A DNA stretch of 64,000 nucleotides from Bolinopsis microptera (taxonomy: Eukaryota > Ctenophora > Tentaculata > Lobata > Bolinopsidae). The notes beneath the pieces are model-generated. The model was given only the letters and a program-made list of their open reading frames with translations. It did not search any database and was not told the origin of the DNA. Positions 27,201 through 48,200 of this stretch are shown one piece after another. A program made the translations under genes and the position numbers. Every line of letters starts with the position of its first letter. Position 1 is the stretch's first letter. The stretch is taken from NCBI RefSeq assembly GCF_026151205.1, contig NC_087072.1, positions 5,752,084 to 5,816,083 on the forward strand, given 5' to 3'.

Positions 27201-30200
27201 CGTTTAACGAATTGAAAGGGGACAAGTTAGAAATAGTAGCTTTCAGAGAATGCAGTCCGCGTTACCCTTGTCCTTTCGGTAATTACAGATAGGAACATAA
27301 TATTACCCCTGGACATTACTGGAAGGGAGCGAGACAAATTGAAAACGGGTAGATTTAACGGAAATAAATATTTAAATATTACAGTACCAAAGTCCTTGCA
27401 GAGTCTTAATTTCATTAATTTCGTATATTTTTACGACAGAGGAGATAATATTACCCCTTAATATGACCGGTATCATAACGGAAGGAAGAGACACCGTCAG
27501 AATTGGTCCAATTCCAAAAACTTGCTCGCTCCGTCTTATCAGATTTTTATAATTTTAACGGGAATTCAATATTATATATGTGACGTACGTACGATTTTGT
27601 CTGGCATTCTGCTAATTCATCACGATTAATTAGCGCTCCAGCAATTAGAGCAAAAGAGTCAGATCTTGCAAATAGTGTCAGTAAACAATAATTTTATTAA
27701 GTTCAGACAAACAGGATTCACACATCACATAAGTGTGAACTTGAACTAGATAAAAATAAGATATTGTCACAGGTGTTCTTGTTCTCGTTTGTTTCTTTGG
27801 AGAGACTAAGATAATGGAACCATGTGTCTGAACAAAGGTGGATCTTTGGTTAAAAGAACACTGGTCCATTGCGAGGGATTATTAATTAGAAATTGCCACA
27901 GCTTATAATAAATGTAAATTGTGATATAAAAAGCTGCTGATTATGGTAACTTTTCAAATTAACTTTCAGGAATTCAGCTAAAGTGCGGGAAGTAAGTAAG
28001 TTTGGAGTGGCGGAGGACAAGTTAGCTGGGTGGTACTCACGGAATCAAAGCCTCTACAGTCTCCTGTCAAGTGCACTCCTACATTGTGACAAGGTTTTTA
28101 ATTGTGTTCCTTTAATTGCGCGACCTGTCAAGTGTCAATCCTGAGCGGTGATCGTGTGTCACGGCTTACAATAACGATTATTGGGGGCACTGGAGCAACC
28201 TAAAACGTTGAAAATAAAGGAGGTCGCTGGTCAGTCGTTGCTATATATATAACTATAAGTAGAGGGAATATTGACAGTGCGATCTCTGATATATGACGAG
28301 GAGGTTAGGTTGCTTCCTCTTGGCAGAATAATCAGAGGTCTTGCAGTTCCATGTGCTAATCCTTATAGATATATAAGACGGCGAGACATATCATAATTCA
28401 ATCTTATAATTTTATAAATTATATCGTTGTATCTTGACACCACTTTAGAGTTAAACGGTTTGTTGCTGGTTATTATAAAATTAGTTTTTGGTTGGTTAAT
28501 GTCAGTTACTATCATTAAGATACATTATTCGAGGACTGTCTCGATCAGTCATTTTATACAGGTCTGAACTCTGCTATTTACAACTTAGTTTAGGATATTA
28601 ATCACACTCAACTTTATTGATTAAATTTGGGTTGTCTGGCGAACCATTTTCTCTTAAGATCTCCAAATAAAATTGTATAGTATGGCAAACAAAATTGAAA
28701 CTGAAAATTTAAAAATGTAATGCCCAACGAAAACGATGTGAACTTGGTATACATGGCTACATGAAGAATAAAGATGTTCAATTACAATTTGTTAGATCAA
28801 AATTTGGACAATCAAAGAAGTTATAAAAATTAGATTGAAATATTAAATCAAATATTATCAACCAACGAAGCGTGGCATTGACTATTACATTGCATAACAA
28901 AAAATTGAATGATGAAAAATAAAAAAAATGATAAAAATAGGTTGCAGCTTGGTGACTGATTGGTTTTTCGTGGGGCTAGATGCGCAGGGACAATGTATTG
29001 GCGGTATTGCTAGTAGTCAAAATATACACTGTGGATATTGGCAAGAAAGATACATTATTAGAAAGAGTCTTTACAAAAGAGGGGGTTTGGGACTCATTCA
29101 CATCTTCTGAACGTATTCTATGAATAACAAAATGAACCGCTGGCGCTGGGTATCTCACAAATATCGCTTAAACTGATTTTATGACTTGATTCAAATTCCC
29201 CGTCCAATTAGATCTAATATTTGTGTAAGTTCGTGCTAATAACATCATAAACACGCTAATTATTGTTAATAGCCTACTGTAAAACTTCAATAATGACGAA
29301 AATTTAATAACCTTTTGATTTATACTACGATATCAAGATAATTGTCTCTAATGACATTTTGCGATCTTATTTGATACGGAAATTTTATTGACGGAAAATG
29401 TTTGGTTCCGACCAAAACATTGCAATTAGGTATGTAGATAAATGATTTTTTATGGATATTATTATTAAACCAGCGAATAAATATTACCATAAATTATGCA
29501 GAAAGAATAAAGATACATCGATAACCAAAGTTACCTAATTTGTCTAGCAGTTTAAATGACCGACAAATCAATTAAAGACTACCTGGATATAGAATTTAAA
29601 GAGTATTTCTTTGGAAAAGCTATTAGAAATAAGAGGCCAACTTTCTCGGCTGAGCTAAAGACAGGTTCAGGATAGAACACTTTGAAAATACAATATAAGA
29701 AATTTTCATATTCTAAACTTTGGACAGTCTAATTTTCTTAACAATTCAAAAGACTTTACAATTACAGCACAGAAGCTTAAACCGTATAGTATAGTATAGT
29801 AGTAACCGTATAGTTTAGTTTAGTAGTAGTACTGGAATGAGAATATGGGTAACGGACAACTTCACTCAATTCGACACCGTTCCCACACAGTTAGCAGGGC
29901 ACCCAATCAGCTTAATTGGGTACCCAATCAGCCTAAATCCCAACACGACAACTTTACCCATCCCATAATATAAGTATTTAATTGTTCAGACACAGCTATA
30001 GATTAACCTGTAGTAGAACCACGTGACACAGCTATAGATTAACCTGCAGTAGAACCACGTGACACAGCTATAGATTAACCTGCAGTAGAACCACGTGACA
30101 CAGCTATAGATTAACCTGCAGTAGAACCACGTGACACAGCTATAGATTAACCTGCAGTAGAACCACGTGACACAGCTATAGATTAACCTGCAGTAGAACC

Positions 30201-33200
30201 ACGTGACACAGCTATAGATTAACCTGCAGTAGAACCACGTGACACAGCTATAGATTAACCTGCAGTAGAACCACGTGACACAGCTATAGATTAACCTGCA
30301 GTAGAACCACGTGACACAGCTATAGATTAACCTGCAGTAGAACCACGTGACACGTGATAGTAGCTATTAATTTAGCTGCTGGGAATATGGTTCAGTGTTG
30401 TGTTTTGATTGGATTGACAAAAACGCGGGCATTTTATTTGGCACTGAAGCAAGGTTAGAATGTAGTAGGAAAACTGTGGGTGCAAATAAGCTTGACACAC
30501 GTTGCATTTAGCACAGTGTTGTCAGAGTTTTGGCTTGCCAGGTAAAATCCAATAAAATTATAATCTGGAGTAAAATCTGGATATAGGACACTAGGGCGTA
30601 GAACACAAGGGCGGTAGACGCAAGAACATAGGACACGAGGGCGTATGACACAAGGGAGTTACCTTCCCAAAAGGGTGTACACAAGGCCGAATCACATGAT
30701 TCATTTTAGCATCGACACGCATCGGAACCAAAACCGTCCTGCGATATTCTGAAGACCAAGTTTGTCACATGAACATCTAGGCAGTGTTTAATTGGTCTAA
30801 GCACGTTACCAAATCTGCTGCTGAGTTGGCTGAGACATTTAAGGAAAATCTCTCAATTTTTGGCTCGTAAATCTGGGTGATTATTTGTCACATCACTATG
30901 TTTCGTTTCAAATTTAGATGTGAGTAGATCCAATTCTTCGAGCTAAGTTTTACGTCAACCTGGCTGTTGAGAACATTAAAAAACCCGTTTGTCTATGTTA
31001 AAGTGATTCATGTGATTCGCCCTTTTAAGAAAGTACCGCCCTTGCGCCCTACGCCCTCGTGGGGTCCGGGACTCTACGGTGTAAGACTCTACGGCGTGAG
31101 ACTCTACGGCGGGTCAGGGTTAGGGTTTGGGTAAGACTGTTATCATAGTGGCGGCTAAACAGTGTTATTTACACTGATAAGCTAGGAAAATTTCGGAGAA
31201 AGTGCAGCCATTTAAACAGGCTTGTTTCATTGTTTTAACTTTTAAGGGGGTATACACCAAAACAGGGGTTTGTGTCTTTGAGAAGTATATGTATCAGATA
31301 ACGATTAACGATGATAGAGCTGCTATGAACTTTGCATGAACTCCCGATCCAGCGACCCAGGAGAACATTAAGCCATCAAACGCAACCATCTGCATTGACA
31401 GTCTGTCCGTGATCGCAGACTGACTGACTTGCAACATTGGAAAGGCAGACTTGTCATCCAATGGATTCAAACAACAAAATACAATTTAATGAGATGGCTG
31501 ACAAATTTGTCAATGATGTTGACCAGAACAGATATGTAGCTGTGTCCCGTTTTCTTGCAACACAGAAACGGCCTGCATTATATTAATATTAATGAGATCA
31601 GGGCCGGGGTCCTCCCCCAAAACATCCAGCCGTCTTACAAATAATGAACTTTTGCCTCTGCGAGAAGAGAGAAATATTGAAACAACAAGAGGCTGCGATC
31701 TTGGCAAATAATGAACGTGAACTGGAGATGTTTCCTTAATGCCGACTACATAGCAGCAACAGCAAGTGCGTTGTTAGACGCCACTCACACTGCCAAGGCT
31801 AAGAAGAGGGATGTAATTGTTAAATAGTATTAGTTATTAGTTACCTTCATTAATGAATTGGTTAAACATCGATACATAATACATATTTAACCACATATTA
31901 CATAGCCGAATCATTGTTTATAAATAATAATCAACATGGCCTGTCGAATACAACACTGAATATTGATAACCAGAGTCTAGTCGTCTGCGCCCACTTAATT
32001 GTTATCCAAATATGATGACGATTGTGTTGCGGTGACGTGTGTGTACTTTATCATATGTTTATAATAATGTTAATAATAATGTTTATAATAATGTTTATAA
32101 TAATGTTTATAATAATGTCTAACCGTCATGAGTTTCAATATTCATATCACTCTCAGGAATACAAGTTTTTTGACGGTTTGGTTCTAAGTGAGAAGGGGAA
32201 TAAGAAAGTGTGGAGCAACGTTTTTCCGGATACCTTACCTGCCGTGCTAGCCCTGGAAAAATCCTATGGCGAACAGAGAGAATCTCAGGCAGCGGGTATG
32301 TGATATTGTTCTGACACGTGACAGGGGATATGTGATATTGTTCTGACACGTGACAGCGGGTATGTGATATTGTTCTGACACGTGACAGCGGGTATGTGAT
32401 ATTGTTCTGACACGTGACAGCGGGTATGTGATATTGTTCTGACACGTGACAGCGGGTATGTGATATTGTTCTGACACGTGACAGCGGGTATTTGATATTG
32501 TTCTGACACGTGACAGCGGGTATGTGATATTGTTCTGACACGTGACAGCGGGTATTTGATATTGTTCTGACACGTGACAGCGGGTATGTGATATTGTTCT
32601 GACACGTGACAGCGGATATGTGATATTGTTCTGACACGTGACAGCGGGTATGTGATATTGTTCTGACACGTGACAGCGGGTATGTGATATTGTTCTGACA
32701 CGTGACAGCGGGTATGTGATATTGTTCTGACACGTGACAGCGGGTATGTGATATTGTTCTGACACGTGACAGCGTTTGACCGAGCAGCTTCCAACATTGA
32801 CAAACCCAAAATCGCTTTCAAATGCCAAACAAATGTTGCTTACCAGTATCAAGATCTAAAATTAATTTAAGTAGCCCTTTGGAGACCACCCACTGGGATA
32901 AAGATTTGGTTCAACTTAAGCCGTTAAATATGGAGAATATGTTTGTTAAGCTTTATAGCACGGCAGCTGGAACCTGGCCGCTAAAAGCCTTAAATTCCTA
33001 TTAAATTGTATTAAAAGCTTTTAACGGCTGTGTTTATATGGTTTAATCATTAATATTTGTATGGTAATATCTTTGATCTAATAAATCCTAGATAGAGCAT
33101 AAATTTTAAAGCAGCTGTGTGGATGTTCACTTGATTTAAATCATACTAAAACTAAAATAACTTAAAACAGGTGAGGACAGTTCAAGTGAGAGTGCAGGAA

Positions 33201-36200
33201 GTTTCACGCTACTCTTCGAGAGTTCACTCAGTCAGGATGTTACTCAGTACTCTCAAAATCCTGCTCTAACCAGTTAGTCGTTATTTGTTAATTCTTTAAT
33301 CGATAAAAAAGGAGATCAGATATAAACCTGTTAAACAGATTTGCGAAACAGCGCCCACGTCAGAGTAACTCTTCAAAAAATATCATATCGAAATTTAAAG
33401 ACTAAAGCAAAGTACTTTATAAATATAACATTAAAAGCTAGCTACTAGTATAAACTAGCACACAGTACAAACATATTAACTTATGTCATTATCGTAATAA
33501 TTTATAATTTCATAGTTTTAATATCCTTTGTTTTAAAGTTGGTGAGGTTAATTTGTCTCTAGCTCTATCATTTAAGCATCTTTCAAATGAGGTGACTTCA
33601 AATATTGTAAAACTGTCAGATGACGCTTTAACTAAATTGTATCAATCGCCGTTAGTTTCACACCCAACTTAAATCGTAAATGGCTTCAGAAACTCAAGTG
33701 CAAGAATCGAGCACTACCGCTTCCGAGAGCTCACAGCCAAGTAACAGCAGTGATCCACTCTACTGCTCCCTGGGGAGAGTGTTCCAGAAATTCGTGGACA
33801 AACAGGCCTTCCTTCAACGTTTCTCAGGAATGTAAGAATTAAGAATGTTTGTAATCATTGTATTTTACCACTATCTTCAACTTCATTTGAAGTTGAAGAT
33901 AGTGGTGAATAAAAATAGCCCTATTAAAAGGCACGGTGTAGTTAATATTGTCACACTATGAAATCATATAAACCCTTGATGGTTAGGATAATCATCTCAT
34001 CCTTTAGACAAACTTAGTCAAATAACGATTTCTTAATCAGGTGATAAGATATCGCCTAAATAGGGCCAGCACGGAAACTATGGGTCAGAACTTGTTAACT
34101 TGCTAGGTTAAATAGATGAGATGCCAAAATTAAGCCACTAATGTCGAAAACGTTATTTCAACTTCAAATGAACATGGCCATAAAGTGTTTTATATTTTTG
34201 TTTGTTATTTGGATGGAGTACCAATTTTCAATTTTGAGCTATCAGAAACTGTGACACGTACAGTTAAGTGTCTGGTGAATGTCTGTTCAACAGATGCTGA
34301 TGAAGCAATTAATTATTAAAGATGTCTGGTATTCAGCGTATCACATGAGTACTGATTGTATGCTAACTAGACACACGTTATATATATTGTCTGGTATGCA
34401 GCATGTCACATGAGTACTGATTGTATGCTAACTCGACACACGGGCTCCCATCAACAAGCAATCTGAACTGTGATGATCTGATCCGTGGTATCAAGGCTCA
34501 CTCGACGTTTTCACTGACTCATTATACCTCATTACCTCATTTATTGGGCTCATGTAAACTGAATGAGCTTACTCTAAGTACCCTATCAGACTCAATTAGC
34601 CAGTCCTTGCCCCTCATCGAGATTCCAGTATCCAGGTTAAAAGAGGTACTGAGATCCCAAATAAATATCAACATTCACTTCTATCTCTCTCCAACTGTAC
34701 TAACTACAACTTTACATCCTACTCACTGTCCAAATCCCTCAACCCTACTATCACACATTATTTCTCTCATCATGAATTCAACGTCCGCTTTGAGCAGTGA
34801 TTACTTTTACAACCAGTTGACGGAACTAGCAGCACAACAGAACAGGAAGAGCAGATCCAGCTCCAACCATCCCTCCTCTGAAGACAAACCCTCCAGAACA
34901 CAATCTAACTCTGACGAAGAAGTTCTGTCCGTTCCTGATCAGAACTGCAGAGAGGTTATGAACACAGACCACCCCTTCCTAAAGTACGCTGTGAAGCTGG
35001 GCTACGAGCTGGAGCTGGCACAAGATGCTTTATCCCGTCTAGGAGCCTCTGCTTCAACAGATTCCCTACTGAAGGCGGTGTTGTACAGCTACGCAGCCTT
35101 GAATCCTATCAGGAAGAATAGAAACAACAGGAGACACTACAATAATTATAACAACAATTATAACAACAACAACAGATCCTACCACAACCACCATCACAAC
35201 AATCAGTACATGAGCAACGGCAAGCCCTTCCCATCCTATATGATCACCAGAGACAGTTACCAGCGGTTCAACGGTCACCACCCTGAACTCGCAGCCCTCA
35301 AATCAGCTCTCAGTCAGGGTCCCATCACCCTCCCTCAGAACATGAAACCCATCAGTCCTCCCAACGCTCATAATAATGGTGTCTTCACATCACAGAACAA
35401 CGAACCCTACGAATTGAATGTCACCGATGCCATCTTCGAACCCTTCGCTTACTCTCTAGAGTCATCTCCTGATAGTCTCTCACTCAGCGAGTTCTCGTAG
35501 ACTGAGTGAACAGTACCTAGTCCTATCTTCTACGTGTATAGAACTTCATTTGTATTATTTAAGCGCGAAAGTTTGACGAAGGAATCTTTGTTTTAGCATG
35601 TGCAATTTGTAAATAGTTTGGGAATTTTCTTTTTATCGATGAAAATTGATTGCTTTATTGAGTAAATGTTTTGAAGAACCGAGTAAAAATAACAGGTAAA
35701 AGGGAACAACAAGAGTGAGTGCAGTATAAGAGGAAGGGGGGCGCAGTATAAAATTACCTCTAAAATGTTCAATCAAGAATAAATTAATAATTGGTCCATT
35801 CCCTCAGATTAACCGACGTGATGATAGAAAACAATGTGAAAGTGTTGCTATCCCGAGTTCTACTGAGTACGGGTGATACTCTGCTCCCTCACCTGGGCAG
35901 CATCTCTGAAGTGTGGGTGGGGTGGCTTGTGTCACGTGGTGTGGTGGATAACCTGACAGAGGAGGTACTGCAGATCTGCTTCAACCACCAGATTATTATC
36001 AATGTTAGTATACAATGTTAGTCGATAGCGAATTGTACTGTGCAAAGTACTCGCATGAGTAGAAGCGATATACAAATGAAACGCGAAGATCAACGAACAT
36101 ACAGTTTTACGAAATAAGAAACAATATCGATTATTAATACAAACGCTGACGATCGATTTGTTTGCTATTTCATGAAACTTTACCTTCGTTAATCTTCGCG

Positions 36201-39200
36201 TTTCATTAGTATCAATGTGAATTATGAGTTTGTGATATAGTCTTATACTGGACGCAGTTAAATTACTATTTAGTGAGAAATATAAAATATGAAGAGAAAA
36301 TGGGCGATTAGGTTTGGCCTCTATACGGCCTCTATACGGCCTCTATACGGCCACTATACGGCCTCTATACGGCCTCTATATGGCCTTTATACGGCCTCTA
36401 TATGGCCACTATACGGCCTTTATACGGCCTCTATACGTGTAGGGGCCATATTATATAGAGGCCGTTTAAAGGCCATATAGAGGCCGTATAGAGGCCGTAT
36501 AGTGGCCGTATAGAGGCCAAACCTAATCGCCCATTTTCCCAATATGAAAATCTCTTAGTTTAAATAATTGGTTAAATCGAAGCATTACTGAACGAATATA
36601 GTGACATTTTATACTCCTCTTGTTTTATGTGTTGTGAGTGCTGACAATAACCTACGCACGTACAAAAATATCACTTGTGTTTTGGCCTTTCTTTTTTTGT
36701 ACTATATTGTGTGGTCAGTAGATAAATCAAATGGCTGGATTGTTTGCAAAAATTAAGAATAATCTAATGAACTCAACATGCACTGCAAGATAATGGAGAA
36801 ATTTATTATCAAAAATTTGAGATGATATTGGAATGGCATTACTGCAAATATAGCGAAAGCAAAAATGTATCCGTGGACAAATCAATGTTAGTTTGGGGTT
36901 CTGGCTATGGCATGAATAGGATATCGGGACTGTTAAAATCAGGTGGTAATAAAGTGATAATTGCTACATCTTATTTATTGATTATAAGTATCTAAAATCC
37001 ACGAGCGACTCATCACTTTATCACTTAAATACAATGACCTGGAAGTATAGACAAATGACCTGTAATAACACCATTGTCCCAGGACAGGATGACGTGTTCA
37101 GATCTCCTGGTGCTCCTGCTAACTCAGTGCACTGTAGACACCCCCATCTCTAACGACCTAATAGGTCTCTCCAGCCACCTCCTCTCGGTGTGGTCCTGCT
37201 CTCCCATAGACATCAGTGTCTTCTCCCCCCACCTCCTCCTCACCAACAGCACTACCAGTAAGAACGCCTGCAGATCCCTCAAACTCCTCCTCGACTCCTC
37301 CTGTGTCCTGATGTGTGGAGACAAACTGTTTGACCCTCTGATCCAGCTAGTGAAGATGTCTCAGAAGAAGGTGTACGGACCAGCTGCAGTTGTGCTGGGA
37401 CTGCTGCTCTCCTGGATCAAGCGCAACTGTGCTCAACTCTACCCGGAGTCTGTTAACTTGTTGAATGATCTGTGTCTTGCTCTCTTCAGGGACCAGGTCC
37501 AGCTCCTTAAGTTCATATCTGTAGTTCATGCTGTTAGTAAAGGTCACTCGGAAACAGCTACGCGCTTTCAAGGACAACTAATGGATAATCTGAGCAGGAT
37601 ATACGGGAAACCCAAGTCACTTGTGATAGAGACCCTGAGTATGTCGGGGGAGGAGAGAAGTGTGGTGGTGGCTCTAGAGAAGAGTGGACTGGAGAAACTG
37701 ATGAGAGATACTGATATTCAGATTACAGTGGCTAATGCTCTTATCAAATCAGCTGACTCCATCAGCAGTGATCAGGTTCGTTGTTATATCTATTGCTCAT
37801 TAATATCTGTATTAACATAAATCGACCGGAACCGTTTTAGGGACTGGTAAAAGTGCCGGGAGGGTGTCTTAAACCGGGACTGGGATTAAAACCTGGGCCA
37901 GGATTTTTGAGCTGCTAAAATTCAACTACCAATCAAGGACAAACATAGACTGCGGCTTGTGCGGAAAGCGATTTTTAATTTTGTCCGCACACCGCGACAA
38001 ATCGCGATTACCTCATTTTCCGCAACAAGTACCTATCTCTAATCGCAGTTTTCATTGAAATTATTTTATTAGAATATCCCTACACCATACGTATCATATG
38101 ACAAAAATCTGATCATTTTGCAATGCAATTTTTAATCAGACAAAAATATTTCCAAAATATTTCTAAAGTACACTCTAATACTTTTGTTGAGTAGTTACTA
38201 GTTCCTCTTCGTAACAATTTATTATATATCAGAATTTCCAGTTGCTATGAGTATGAAAAATTTCCTGGCACCAGCAGGCAACTATTTAGTCAACTGTTCA
38301 GCTAACAGAAGTGATATTTCTACCAAGTTATCATAATTTTACCTTTTAGAGAATAAGGTGCAGGCCTTGTGACGTAACTGATAGAATTGAAGAATATAAA
38401 AGTGACAACAAAATTTGACCATGTGTAATACAATGGGTTATTAAATAGTGCACAGGATAATCTGCGCCATCACAGTGCTGACAAGCACGACCGTGGGTTT
38501 AAAATGAAAAGTGGTAAACAAAATTTTGGTTGTCGCGGTTATTCGGGGCGCGGTAATTCGTAGCGTTACTGTACTAAGAATGTAAACTGTGTGCTATTTC
38601 ATTTAATAAAGTATTTGACATTTCAAAATCCATGGTTTTTTTTCGTTGATTTTTACGAGACGTTTTTCAAAAAGTGTTTATTTAAATCCCGGCTTAGTGT
38701 CGGCCAAATGGCCGATATTGACCGGGATTGGAACTAAGGCGGGGTTCCGGTCGATTCTTGTCCAATGTACATATACTGCCAAATTGACAGGAAGAAATTC
38801 CATCCCCTGTTTTTATCCAGACCACATTTTTGTGTATTTACTGTCCTATTAAAAATGTTAGGTTTAACAGCTGTCGAAAATATTATAATTTCCTTTCAGA
38901 TGTTATCTATTTTGGAGGACATGAAGAAAATCATCGGCACTTCAGGAGAAGAATGTAAAAAATTGCTCCTAAGCTTCACTATCAAGTGTTATGAAAAGTC
39001 CTCAAACACGATCATCACAGAAAATTGCATTCCCATCCTTATTCGAGCTGTTTGTGACAAAGACCTCCGCCAGATTGCAGTAGAATTTTGGTACTCAACT
39101 TTGCCAACTACTGTTAAAAACCGTTTCGAGAAGCTTGTGTCACTCTACTCCTTTGAGGTTGATGACGTTTTCCTGAGATCTGTTGCAATAATTCTTTTAT

Positions 39201-42200
39201 CACTCGGTGAATTATCCTCATCATATCAAAGCCCACTTTATCTCAAGCCTCTAGCAACAGACCTATCATGGCAAGATCAGGATATATCTGGTACATTTAA
39301 CTTTGAACAAAAGCAGCGAGGCAAAGTTCGGGCCACTCAGAAAGTTTTCCAGTTTTCTCAGACACAAGCCGACCAGTTCAGTCGTGGTCACAACACAAAA
39401 TCTGTGATGCAGACTCCCAGAGGATTCCTATCACGAGGATCTGGTGGGTCTCAGAGGGCATTGTCCTACAGCGAGTTAACTACAGCAAGGATGAGAGCTG
39501 AGAGACGTCAGCAGTCTCAGCAAGCTCGCAGCAAGGCTATCCATCTAGTGAGGAATTACCGAGCTGGAGAGCTCCCTGACATTCAGATCACCTACCAAGA
39601 TCTGATCAGACCTATGGGTGCTATCGCTAACATCTCTGAGAAATTCGCTTCCTTTACCCTACAAGCTCTTCTGGAAGATGAAGATAAACTTGATCTACAG
39701 GGCGGTATTTTATTGATCTTGAGAACAACCTCTAACCAGGGTCTCGCGAAGTTCTGTATTGAACTTTGTGTCAAGCAGTCCTACGTTGCTGATGATGCTG
39801 CCTCTCTTGCTATTCGTCACCATCAGTATAGCTTGGGAGTCCTCTGGACTGAGGAAGCAATCACTAAATGTGGTAAAGATGAGAGGGGTTGGGGTGAGCT
39901 GTGCAGCATATACGGAGCAATCGGGGATCACGATGCTATACTCGGCATCAGGAAACACGAGATGAGTACAGAACCAGGATTGCTAGAAGCTATCACAGCA
40001 ATGTCTCTAAAGAACTTTAGTTTAGCTGCTCAGAGATTCAAGGATCTTGGCGGTCCACCTCAAACTGATATGCTGGACTGCATGTTAAACCTATGTCAGT
40101 GGAATGAGTTGGATGATCACCTAGAGGATCTTCCACCCTCTTCCTTCTCCGCTCGAATCCAACTATCCAGCATGTCCCACGCTACTGAAACCTTCTCACT
40201 GGCCGAACTAGAAAATATTGCCACCAAGTTTGAGGGACATCTTCAAGTTGATACTCACGGCATACTGGCATTGCTTTTCCACTTAAAGGAAAATGACGAC
40301 AAAGCTCTGGCTCAAATTTACAAGGGTGTTCAGAGTTTCCTGGCAGAATGGAGAGTCTCTCAACAGAATGTCCAGAAGAAGAACACCCTACATCCATGTC
40401 AAGCACTAGCTGAACTGTACGACCTGGTTCACAACGGTTCCCAGCTTGCTTCACACTGGAGTTCGTGCTACCCTGAGGATATCTCAACTCCCTTCACTAT
40501 TTGGCAGTGTTTGCTGAACCAACGCAGACTGCTCCCTGGTAACACTTCTGACGAAATGGACAACTCCTGCTCTTATACCGAGTCTGACTCTCTGATGGAG
40601 GATCGTACTGGTGGAGATAACAAGTACGGGCTAATATTCGCTGCTGTCCAATCTGCTCTTAAACAAAACAGTGCTAGTATTGCAAAGAGACTGGTTCAAC
40701 AGATTGATGTGAACGAGCTGTATGGTGAGGATCTGATCAAGTACTACGGGATCGGAACTGAGGTGGTTATTAGGAGTGTTGAGGAAGCTAATTCCACTGT
40801 ATCTGAGAATATCTCGAGACTGGAAGGAATGTTGGGAATGCTCGATGAGGAGCAGTTTGTATCCAGTGCACGGTTGAAGCTCAAGATGGCACAGTTGCTC
40901 TTTAAGAACCAGTCTGTAAGTCGTCATGAACCTGGTGTCCTGTATGCTGAGGGAATGGAAACACTTACTCGGATTGACTGTTCCACTTTCAACGTAAGTA
41001 TATTCAGCACAATTAAATATCAAGACATGTAGCTCATTTATAAGATATCAGATACAATATTCGTTTAGGGAATTGTAAGTAACAGCAAGTATTTGCGATG
41101 TGATTCAAATATAATACAAATAACAACGAACAAATGCTGATTGCTGATGATCGCGAAACGTCGCGTTTAATCTTCAAATTGTCAGACATGATTTCGCCAT
41201 TTATGGTTTAATAAGTACCAAACAGCAGTGATCATTTATTCTCACAGGAAAACAGTGTTAAAAACTACGATGTTGTCATAGAGATGCTCTCTTCCGAGAT
41301 ACAGAAACCAACCTTAGCACTTATTGATAGTCAACAATCTGATATAAAGCTTGTCTTTCAGAACGTCACTCTGACTGCTATGAGGTATTTAAACTTTCTC
41401 AGAAAACCTGATTTTTGTAAGCAAAAAAACTCAAGTACAAAGATTCAATGTTCTAATGAAGGTAAACAATTCAGGAAATAACAGACATTTTCTTGAAAGA
41501 ATCATCAATTGAGACGCAATAAGTAACGCTAAATGACTTACCTGTTGCCCGAGGTTACTTAACATAGTAAACGTTTATTTTTGAATAGGAATACCTTTAT
41601 AACCATTTGTTCAACACAATACTATACAAAAACTCGATCTCCTAACAATTCAAAACAGCAAAATTATTATTTGAAAAATAGTGGCGAAGTTCCCCGACAC
41701 GGCGATTTTACCCCAATCTACGGTATTCAAGCACAAAGACGAGATAATCATCAAACGTGATTTATTCATCCATCATTTGACCAGGACCTTACGTCCAGCA
41801 TTGCTGAAATTAACTTTTGTGATCTTGCACTAACACGGACCGCCAAGAAGTCACTTAATTTTCAATATTAAAATAAGTCGATCTTCGGGAGACGTTCCGT
41901 TATCCAAATATCCATACCTTACGGCTCACGACCTACTTTCAACTGTGCCACTTGCTACTTGACATGGATGTTTCAGTAGAGCATGATCTTGTCCTATCTA
42001 TCAAATGTAACTCATCTTGTTAATTTGAATCTTCTCTCAGGTATAATAGCAGAAAAGCGAGACTGATGTTCCCTTACGTCTTGCAATCTATCAGTGGAGA
42101 GCAAGCCAAGTCTGACTTCCTTAAAAAGGTAGTATTTCCATTTCCTGGAAAGATATTACCTCTTATCCTAAGAAGCGAAAACTTTGCCCTTCACTCTACC

Positions 42201-45200: not shown

Positions 45201-48200
45201 AGAACATATATTAACTGATATTGTTCATGAAGTTGTGGAGTGAATATAGGTCAGTGTTTCCCAACACCTGCCCCAGAGCACTTCATGTGTGACATTATTG
45301 GTAATGTGCAAACTTATTGGCATATGATGCAGAATATTAAGTTGTTATAATTTCAATGTTCATTAATTGCAAGGTTGACGTAAAGAAGAAAGTGGAGGAA
45401 TTGAAAAAATATCAACAAAAAGTAGGAATGGACGGAGAGAAACAGCCAGGAAAAAGGAAAAAAGGCCCCAAACTTTCCGATTACTCGAAATGGTTCACCA
45501 AGTACCAAGCTGGATCCTTAGAGCTGCCAGGTTATCTAAGATTATACCCTTACCATCTTACTCAGGAATTAAGCTATTTATCAGCCGAACCTATAACTAA
45601 GTTTATCTCTTTCGGATTATTGAATCAAGTACTAACAAATGAAAGCAGAACATTTAGGAACAAACGAAATCCCTTTTTAGGTCAGTACAGTGGGATTGAC
45701 AAACCTAACCCGTCGTACCACAAAAAGATAGCTAAGTTCGAGGAAACGGTCACCGTTCTGGCTTCTCTCAGAAAGCCAGTTAAGATAAATATTCTTCTGG
45801 ACAACGGAAAAAAACGTAGCGTTCTGGTGAAGGGTGGTGAGGACTTGCGAACTGATCAGAGAGTCATGCAGGTTGGTTATCTTAGCCATTTATAGTTTTA
45901 TCTTGGGTTTCTGGAACGATATGCAGAACATACAGATTTCAGATATTTGAACTTATTGAACCTATTGAACCGATTGAGATAATTGTCTGATCTTTTTTAA
46001 AAATTTTTCCTCAGTTACTGAAAGTGATGGATGACAAGTTGAGAACCACTCTGAAAGATGCTTCCTTGCGAACATACGATGTTATCCCTCTTACTAACAA
46101 GTTTACTAATGGAATTTAGTTTGAAAATCTATTTTTGTTTAATCATTAGTTAGTTGAATGTGGTTCCTTGAAAATGGGACCGAAATTGGAAAATAGGAAT
46201 TTTCGTTTTGTTAAGATTTCTGCAGTGAGCTTTCTCCGACCGAAATCAAACTTCCAGCACCTCAATCGTATCATTTGCCATCTACAGTTGACTGACTTAT
46301 TGGTTTCGGGTGAGAAATTCAGTAAAAACTGTAAAATTTCGGTCCCCGAAATTTCATCTTCAAAAACTGAAAATGGGACAGACAGATCTGAGATCGAACA
46401 ACATATTTTTCAATTTTCTTCGGGATTTTGACTTCCAGTACCTCAATTTAGTTTCATACCATCATCACTTCTCTACTGTTTACAGTTCTAAACATTCTAA
46501 CTTTGCTATATCCCTCAGTTTAGGAATGATAGCGTGGTTACCGAACACGACTACAATTAAAAGTGTGTTATTTGATGATACTGATAAGCATGTGGCTGAT
46601 AAAGTTAAAGCAGAACATTACGCGTGGGTGAACAGATTCGGGAGTAAGACAGATAACATTCCAGCTTGTTATAAAAAGGTTTTACTTGAGTAGTACTTTC
46701 AAATTTAGTGCGCTAAAGATGTAAATGACGTATGAAAAGCATCGTATGCGTGTTGTAACAACATGATGATTGGTGATAAGAGTATCACTTCAGAAATCAA
46801 CACAATATGTTGCATATGAGAAATATGAAAATAGAAACCATTAACTAACCCTCTCAGATGTACCAGAGATGCAGTTTAGATGACGTTGTGCTCCAGAGTG
46901 AGAGACTCTCCGGTCAGATCTCTCCCACTAAACTCAAATCAGTTCTGGTTAATCTCGCCAGATCGCCTGACTCTTTCGTTTTACTTAGAAAGTAAGTTTG
47001 AAAGTAATCTCAAACTATGTCATGTTCCACACGAAGACATACTGATAAGTAAAAACACACGTGAAGATCAGCTCCTAACATTTAAAAGTGGGCCATATTT
47101 AACATAACACTTAACATACAAAGTTAAGTGGCAGGCAGATATCGATTAAGTGCCACTTTGGTAACCTAAGTTATTGATATTGTTGAATATATGATTATCA
47201 TAATATTTATTTATGTAATATCCTATTGAAGCCCATGGTGGGTTTACTACAACCTAAGTAGCACTTACCCAAGTTAGGTTACTCCGTACTAATCAAAGTA
47301 ACTTAAATACCTCTTAAGTTGCCTCTTAGACCTCATATTTATTAATTGCCCTTAAATAAAATACCACTTATGTTCTTATTGTCATGATACAGAGCCTAAT
47401 CGATCACTTTTGGTTATTTTAAGCAGTCACCCATGATTTTATAATAGTATAGATTATAGTAACCCCTGATTATCTGCCAGGAAGTTTGTATCTACGTATG
47501 TGAGCATGTGTTTATGTCACTGGATACTCGGAGTGGGAGACAGACATCTTAACAACTACCTGCTGGACACTACCTCAGGGGAACTTATTGGGATTGACTT
47601 CGGTCACGTCTTCGGCACTGCCACCACGGTAAGCCGTATTACATATATGTATATATACATCATAGTCATACATATACAATTACAAACACATAAGTCATAA
47701 CTACTTGTAATGGTCATCAAATTGAGTTAAAATCTAATCTTTGCAACTTTGAGTACAAGTACAACCTTGTTCAACAATCAACAGTCAACACCAAACGTTG
47801 CAAGGCCTTAAGGGAAAAATACATTAATTATCGACCGAGTTTTTAGGAGAAAGGGTTCAAATCACCACACATTTGTTCGCGATATGCTAAAATTTCATCT
47901 GTATTTCAGTTGCTGCCAGTACCAGAACTGCTCCCGTTTCGAGCAACACCACAGTTTACCGGAGTATTTGCCCCGCTGGGAGTTGAAGCTGCTATTAGGG
48001 GTCCCATGACACGTGCACTTACTTCTCTTAGGGAGATCAGATCTGTTCTGTTCTGTCTGATGGACGTGTTTGTTAGGGAGCCTACTCTGGACTGGTGTAA
48101 ATACTCAACAAAACATTCCACTAAACAAGGTACTTTAAACAAGCTACTTTGTTTATATTCATGGGAATTATAGAGTGGGCTTCAATCATGCGATATTTAA

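What the first reader, a model, noticed from the sequence alone, without database searches (positions are those of the whole stretch)
32296..32772. PRKDC intron made entirely of a minisatellite whose units carry splice signals
The intron equals 14 complete 32-bp units plus 29 bases. Its donor (GTATGT) is the start of the first unit and its acceptor (GTGACAG) is the end of the last, so most units contain a potential donor and acceptor separated by CGG. Copy-number change would therefore alter intron length without breaking splicing. Use of internal sites would insert multiples of CGG, which in this phase adds in-frame Ala codons next to an existing Ala run. This fits intron origin by tandem duplication of an AG/GT-bearing segment, caught in a very young state.
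Basis: partly seen in the sequence, partly recalled or inferred. Interest (0 to 1): 0.75.

Follow-up and report, generated by a model that had tools for sequence, protein, structure and literature searches.

The report
DNA-repair gene intron made of minisatellite
A predicted intron in the animal DNA-repair gene PRKDC appears to consist entirely of a 32-base tandem repeat whose units look descended from a small dispersed transposon-like element, which would be one more way that new introns can arise.

Summary
Window 32290-32774 is a 32-bp minisatellite (15 x 32 + 5 bases), and the predicted 477-base intron lies wholly inside it. The gene is PRKDC by colinear similarity to human DNA-PKcs; the exon before the array matches only weakly, to residues about 1958-2015.

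The unit's core, TGACACGTGACAG, occurs 527 times in this genome against 24 for the reversed control. It sits in a dispersed palindromic MITE-like family, and the unit's flanks fit that family's arm (P about 0.0004). One unit read in frame hits a stop. CAGCG occurs at both array ends; joining the flanks there once gives an open frame one alanine shorter than the spliced product.

Only 1 of 88 single-intron donor/acceptor pairs stays open, the outermost. Single internal sites would add 32s and a stop, not CGG.

Best reading: a MITE-arm-derived minisatellite inserted or grown at exonic CAGCG and spliced by its outermost signals. An ancient intron overwritten by the array is not excluded. Known precedents: amphioxus mirages, Introners, Daphnia neointrons.

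The parts
32157..32295 (+). predicted PRKDC exon before the intron, ends in phase 1
   Evidence: aligns to human DNA-PKcs about 1958-2015, 0 of 5000 shuffles reach the score, tblastn E 1.4; codon usage reached by 0.45% of 1325 stop-free noncoding frames
32290..32774 (+). 32-bp minisatellite, 15 units plus 5 bases
32296..32772 (+). predicted intron, GTATGT...GTGACAG, 14 x 32 + 29 bases
   Evidence: only pair of 88 that keeps the frame open
32290..32294 (+). CAGCG at the left end of the array
32770..32774 (+). CAGCG at the right end of the array
   Evidence: joining the flanks once here gives an open frame QAAFD
32312..32324 (+). first of 15 copies of the core TGACACGTGACAG in the array
   Evidence: 527 in the genome against 24 for the reversed pattern
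   Evidence: codon usage reached by 6.4% of 3602 null frames; sequence read
35806..35952 (+). next stretch with similarity to PRKDC
   Evidence: human about 2132-2176, 7 of 2000 shuffles, tblastn E 4.3
37059..37817 (+). PRKDC open frame with Pfam DNAPKcs_CC5
   Evidence: E 5.8e-10
38738..41029 (+). PRKDC open frame, CC5 and PDB DNA-PKcs match
   Evidence: Pfam E 1.8e-16, PDB E 6.8e-11
45680..48588 (+). PRKDC C-terminal exons with the kinase domain, in order to the C-terminus

Best explanation
A phase-1 intron of a PRKDC orthologue is built entirely of a 32-bp minisatellite. Most units are compact splice modules: donor CGG|GTATGT, a possible branch point TGTGAT, a pyrimidine-rich ATTGTTCT and the acceptor GTGACAG. 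The unit descends from the arm of a dispersed palindromic MITE-like element whose core also occurs in other minisatellites of this genome. A piece of such an element entered, or was copied into, coding sequence at a CAGCG site, probably in break repair using 5 bases of homology, and grew in tandem. From about two units on it could be removed as an intron by the first donor and the last acceptor, leaving one extra alanine codon. Only that outermost pair gives an open frame, so length can drift while the outer sites must be chosen. Shown: the array, the core family, the arm fit, the frame arithmetic. Inferred: splicing, branch point, de novo gain, order of events.
For: Array and frame arithmetic. 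PRKDC identity and codon usage. Core 527 against 24 for the reversed pattern. Palindromic family: inverted-arm score above the best of 20 shuffles in 20 of 40 sampled core loci; a consensus typed from the copies matches all 40 loci that were scored out of 917 candidates. Unit flanks score 8.4 on the arm matrix, above the median 7.5 of 35 dispersed copies, P about 0.0004. CAGCG at both ends, and the flanks joined there once are in frame. Daphnia neointrons carry direct repeats of 4-12 bp shared with one adjacent exon (PMC4202315, passages). A unit read in frame contains a stop, so it was not coding sequence in this frame.
Against: No RNA and no relatives, so neither splicing nor gain is shown. 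No remnant of the element is seen outside the array, unlike the C6 array. Five other core-array units do not fit the arm (P 0.08-0.71), so core arrays may arise without the element. No closer source copy was found. A 5-bp match at the ends is short and partly belongs to the unit itself. Of 40 sampled core loci none has coding-like flanks on both sides, so the element is not seen making introns elsewhere. Exon 1 similarity is weak (E 1.4) and exon 2 weaker.
Confidence: 0.5

Rival explanations
1. An ancient PRKDC intron sits here; a core-bearing minisatellite arose inside it, expanded and homogenised until it took over the whole intron including both splice sites and a few exon bases.
For: The C6 core array lies about 20 bases after an apparent donor, inside a probable intron, so such arrays do grow in introns; mirages in amphioxus spread over existing exon-intron boundaries (PMC3087553, passages).
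Against: Needs takeover of everything from donor to acceptor with no unique intron sequence left, and a 5-bp repeat at both ends with an in-frame empty site by chance.
Confidence: 0.31
2. Not a spliced PRKDC intron: the array lies in non-coding DNA or in another gene, and the splice signals are coincidence.
For: Exon matches are weak (tblastn E 1.4); no direct Pfam or PDB hit for the exon peptide; exon 2 lacks a good donor and has weak codon usage; a 359-codon open frame without DNA-PKcs similarity lies between this place and the next PRKDC stretch; loose donor plus acceptor pairs occur in 3 of 55 random arrays.
Against: 0 of 5000 shuffles reach the exon-1 score, 3 of 2000 against the three human pieces joined; exon-1 codon usage is in the top 0.45%; the frame continues across the array only in the predicted phase; order agrees with the human protein.
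Confidence: 0.14
3. Tandem duplication of an exonic AG/GT-bearing segment.
For: Repeated units with AG and GT at the boundary; intron gain by tandem duplication is reported, e.g. in potato (PMC4974935, title and abstract start in listing) and by repeat expansion in Cryptococcus (PMC2395259, passages).
Against: The unit has an in-frame stop and is not a multiple of three; its core and flanks fit a dispersed repeat family.
Confidence: 0.05

Closest known systems
Amphioxus mirages (Adh3, globin, troponin C, PGBD5 genes)
   Same: Minisatellite-like tandem repeats covering exon-intron boundaries, many units with AG/GT splice signals, normal splicing reported, length variation (PMC3087553 and PMC3902484, passages).
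   Different: Mirages duplicate one boundary of an intron; here the array is the whole predicted intron with both boundaries, and the unit traces to a dispersed repeat rather than to the gene.
Introners (transposable elements that create introns)
   Same: Non-autonomous DNA elements with inverted repeats that bring splice sites; some families add codons to the transcript (PMC9860276, passages).
   Different: Introner introns are many similar whole elements; here one intron, made of a tandem array of an element's arm, and no other intron of this kind was found in 40 sampled core loci.
Daphnia neointrons from staggered break repair
   Same: Short direct repeats between one exon end and the opposite intron end, 4-12 bp, and internal repeats (PMC4202315, passages).
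   Different: No full tandem array is described in the passages seen ('tandem' and 'minisatellite' do not occur in that text).
Repeat-expansion introns in Cryptococcus
   Same: Repeat expansion creating introns, variable between strains (PMC2395259, passages).
   Different: There each repeat (about 107 nt) holds a full intron and exon ends; here one intron spans all units.
Minisatellites inside MITEs
   Same: A minisatellite within a MITE is reported in Porphyromonas gingivalis (PMC4596501, title and abstract start in listing).
   Different: Bacterial and not an intron.

Membership tests
PRKDC (DNA-PKcs) | CC5 region and C-terminal kinase exons on one strand in the order of the human protein | tested here: met
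PRKDC (DNA-PKcs) | exons next to the array belong to the gene | tested here: inconclusive
   exon 1 weak but beyond shuffles; exon 2 only codon usage, 6.4%
Mirage (amphioxus type) | minisatellite units that include exon-intron boundary signals | tested here: met
   13 of 15 units with donor GT, 15 of 15 with acceptor
Mirage (amphioxus type) | units are duplicates of the gene's own boundary sequence | tested here: inconclusive
   core and flanks fit a dispersed family, which argues for an outside source
Mirage (amphioxus type) | normal splicing despite the repeats | not testable with these tools
   no RNA data
Introner | sequence from a dispersed element | tested here: met
   arm fit P about 0.0004; whole element not present in the intron
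Introner | several introns in the genome made by the same element | tested here: not met
   0 of 40 sampled core loci have coding-like flanks on both sides; the 40 are a part of 527 core places
MITE | short dispersed element with inverted repeats | tested here: met
   (20 of 40 sampled loci above shuffles)
MITE | target-site duplications and a related transposase | not tested
   ends and transposase were not searched for
Neointron by staggered break repair | short direct repeat of exon sequence at the far end of the intron | tested here: met
   CAGCG, 5 bases; short, and part of the unit
Neointron by staggered break repair | intron absent in relatives | not testable with these tools
   no related animal genome is held

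The most novel reading that the evidence does not exclude
A route from MITE arm to minisatellite to intron. The arm of a common palindromic element can hold both splice signals, its core is found in recurrent tandem arrays, and tandem growth inside an exon past about two units is at once removable as an intron of any length. Internal donors then decay because using one gives a stop: all 5 base changes among the 15 units, in 4 internal units, fall at donor positions +1, +5 or -3, while the acceptors are untouched (post hoc, three distinct changes, chance about 0.017 by my own arithmetic for three columns out of 32 all falling in nine donor columns).
Probability: 0.35. Interest if true: 0.7.

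Novelty: new variant of a known kind. Interest (0 to 1): 0.5.

Why it matters
Where new introns come from is still open. If this intron was gained in this lineage, it is a case with a named source (the arm of a dispersed element), a plausible entry footprint, and a built-in buffer: copy number can drift without touching the frame as long as the outer sites are used. It also predicts how splicing must choose the outermost of many near-identical sites, and selection against decoy donors inside the array.

Tried and rejected
Direct Pfam and PDB searches of the exon peptide, and of three + strand frames around it, found no DNA-PKcs match beside the array; similarity appeared only when the matching human piece was aligned. 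Copies of the flanks that might lack the array: none found; the other matches of the left flank are to the simple repeat at 32047-32121. Introner family: 0 of 40 sampled core loci with coding score above zero on both flanks. Tunicate check by glycoside hydrolase 6: no hit, and no control rang, so uninformative. Human PRKDC intron positions from variant names: one search, nothing usable in the listing. Paper on a PRKDC minisatellite intron: 3 papers hold the three terms, none on this by its title and abstract start. The organism was not identified.

Considered: CACGTG as a protein-binding site rather than a repeat family; not tested, but the inverted arms fit an element better. CACGTG is over-represented in minisatellite units here in general (3 of 55 arrays in the sample against 0.27 expected from shuffled units; 4 of 25 in the window against 0.05), so the core may favour tandem growth with or without the element.

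Full report
What is there. Window 32290-32774 is a 32-bp tandem repeat, 15 full periods plus 5 bases. The predicted intron 32296-32772 is 477 bases, 14 x 32 + 29, GTATGT to GTGACAG. The 15 units carry 5 base differences from the consensus, in units 2, 7, 9 and 11. Donor GT survives in 13 of 15 and the acceptor in 15 of 15.

Which gene. C-terminal stretches at 45680-48588 match human DNA-PKcs in order to the C-terminus (the human piece there is recalled and unconfirmed), a PI3/PI4-kinase domain match lies at 47455-47631, and the open frames 37059-37817 and 38738-41029 hit Pfam DNAPKcs_CC5, the second also PDB DNA-PKcs. The exon before the array has no direct family hit. A later stretch at 35806-35952 aligns to human about 2132-2176 (7 of 2000 shuffles, E 4.3). 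The 33680-33832 open frame does not align (1763 of 2000 shuffles reach its score). Codon usage, trained on 3658 codons of this genome, gives exon 1 4.8, reached by 0.45% of 1325 stop-free frames from stretches of the window that I took as non-coding, and exon 2 0.25, reached by 6.4% of 3602; these null frames overlap. PRKDC is therefore well supported for the gene, moderately for exon 1, weakly for exon 2.

What splicing can do. Pairing every donor with every acceptor to give an intron of at least 50 bases (an assumed minimum) gives 88 single-intron products, of which 1 is open through exon 2: the outermost pair, giving ESQAAAFDRA. Retention stops at AAGM-stop. So internal sites used singly do not add CGG; only a 3-base CGG micro-exon between two introns does (11 of 11 open). 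Joining the flanks once at the shared CAGCG gives ESQAAFDRA, one alanine shorter.

Where the unit comes from. A 131-base array query found, outside the array itself, one similar place in G000, on C6, 75-76% identical, period 31, 12.3 copies. The two share TGACACGTGACAG, which occurs 527 times in G000 (282 + 245) against 24 (11 + 13) for the reversed pattern; 15 of the 527 are this array. I took 40 stretches around places chosen from the part listed. Many sit in short palindromic elements: the inverted-arm score beats the best of 20 shuffles in 20 of 40, three of the 20 (L034, L042, L043) being loci that hold core arrays. A consensus typed by eye from these copies matched all 40 loci scored, the best of 917 first-look candidates, with main matches at E 6.4e-30 or better; 4 of the 40 were among my sampled copies. 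By a loose criterion 26 of the 40 sampled loci align over nearly the full element. Leaving out 5 array loci, the arm matrix from 35 copies scores the PRKDC unit's flanks 8.4 (copies left out one at a time: 5% -9.1, median 7.5, 95% 19.6), P about 0.0004 against random flanks; the C6 unit scores 9.6; five other array units score -2.7 to -13.9, P 0.08 to 0.71. No closer source copy was found: allowing 3 mismatches in 27 bases, 15 of 16 matches are the array itself and one is on C5 with 3 mismatches.

Arrays of this core. Two exact cores 8-38 bases apart occur 48 times (35 + 13; reversed control 9 + 0), at 18 loci by my count of the list, this one included. Their periods run from 13 bases upward. 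In the C6 case the rest of the element is still visible after the array, and the array begins about 20 bases after an apparent donor of an exon that resembles GTPBP1 (name recalled, not tested). Two loci on C4 share near-identical 60-base flanks but hold 18.1 and 5.1 copies of a 21-base unit, the second in a degraded array (65% matches). So arrays of this kind do change length.

Background. In 119,880 bases from 12 places that I chose at round coordinates (2796 N), 55 arrays of period 9 or more: 3 with CACGTG (0.27 expected from shuffled units) and 3 with a donor-like plus an acceptor-like site on one strand; in the window 25 arrays, 4 (0.05 expected) and 3. That sample held no copy of the 13-mer.

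How it likely works. The unit brings donor, possible branch point (TGTGAT, its A 21 bases before the intron end), a pyrimidine-rich stretch and acceptor; these labels are my reading of the sequence, not a tested model. One unit alone would shift the frame and stop it; two or more could be spliced out whole. A piece of the element copied in during break repair and then expanded fits this; so does insertion of a whole element followed by loss of the rest. That all 5 unit differences fall at donor positions while acceptors are untouched hints at decay of decoy donors, on a tiny sample looked at after the fact. The rival, an old intron overwritten by the array, cannot be excluded without relatives.

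Literature. Mirages in amphioxus are the nearest precedent (PMC3087553, PMC3902484, passages). Introners include a family that adds codons (PMC9860276, passages). Daphnia neointrons carry 4-12 bp repeats shared with an exon (PMC4202315, passages). Cryptococcus shows introns gained by repeat expansion (PMC2395259, passages). A minisatellite within a MITE is reported (PMC4596501, listing only). A tunicate splicing paper has no occurrence of minisatellite or MITE (PMC13326754, term search).

Verdict. Observation confirmed; gene identity right; the exonic-duplication origin and the CGG claim not supported; a minisatellite derived from a transposon-like arm, acting as a whole intron, is the best reading, unproved without RNA and relatives.

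Noticed in passing
window 34421-35497 (+): A 359-codon open frame, Asn-rich near its end, with a sub-threshold UBA-like match (Pfam UBA_6, E 0.0043, below its cut-off); it lies between PRKDC stretches and may be a nested gene.
   Followed up: no
window 29989-30353: A 36-bp array, 10.1 copies, 99% matches, whose unit also contains CCACGTGACAC across the unit joint.
   Followed up: no
window 36316-36437 and 36454-36518: Two neighbouring 11-bp arrays whose units are reverse complements of each other.
   Followed up: no
L062 443-823 and L063 409-521 (G000 C4): The same 21-bp core array between near-identical flanks, 18.1 copies in one and 5.1 in the other.
   Followed up: partly
L034 1-595 and L033 635-858 (G000 C2): A 23-bp core array of at least 25.9 perfect copies that starts at the edge of the fetched stretch; L033 has 9.7 copies of what reads as the same unit.
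   Followed up: no
window 32047-32121: A 12-bp AT-rich repeat (TTTATAATAATG) just before the exon, with similar arrays at several other places in the genome.
   Followed up: no
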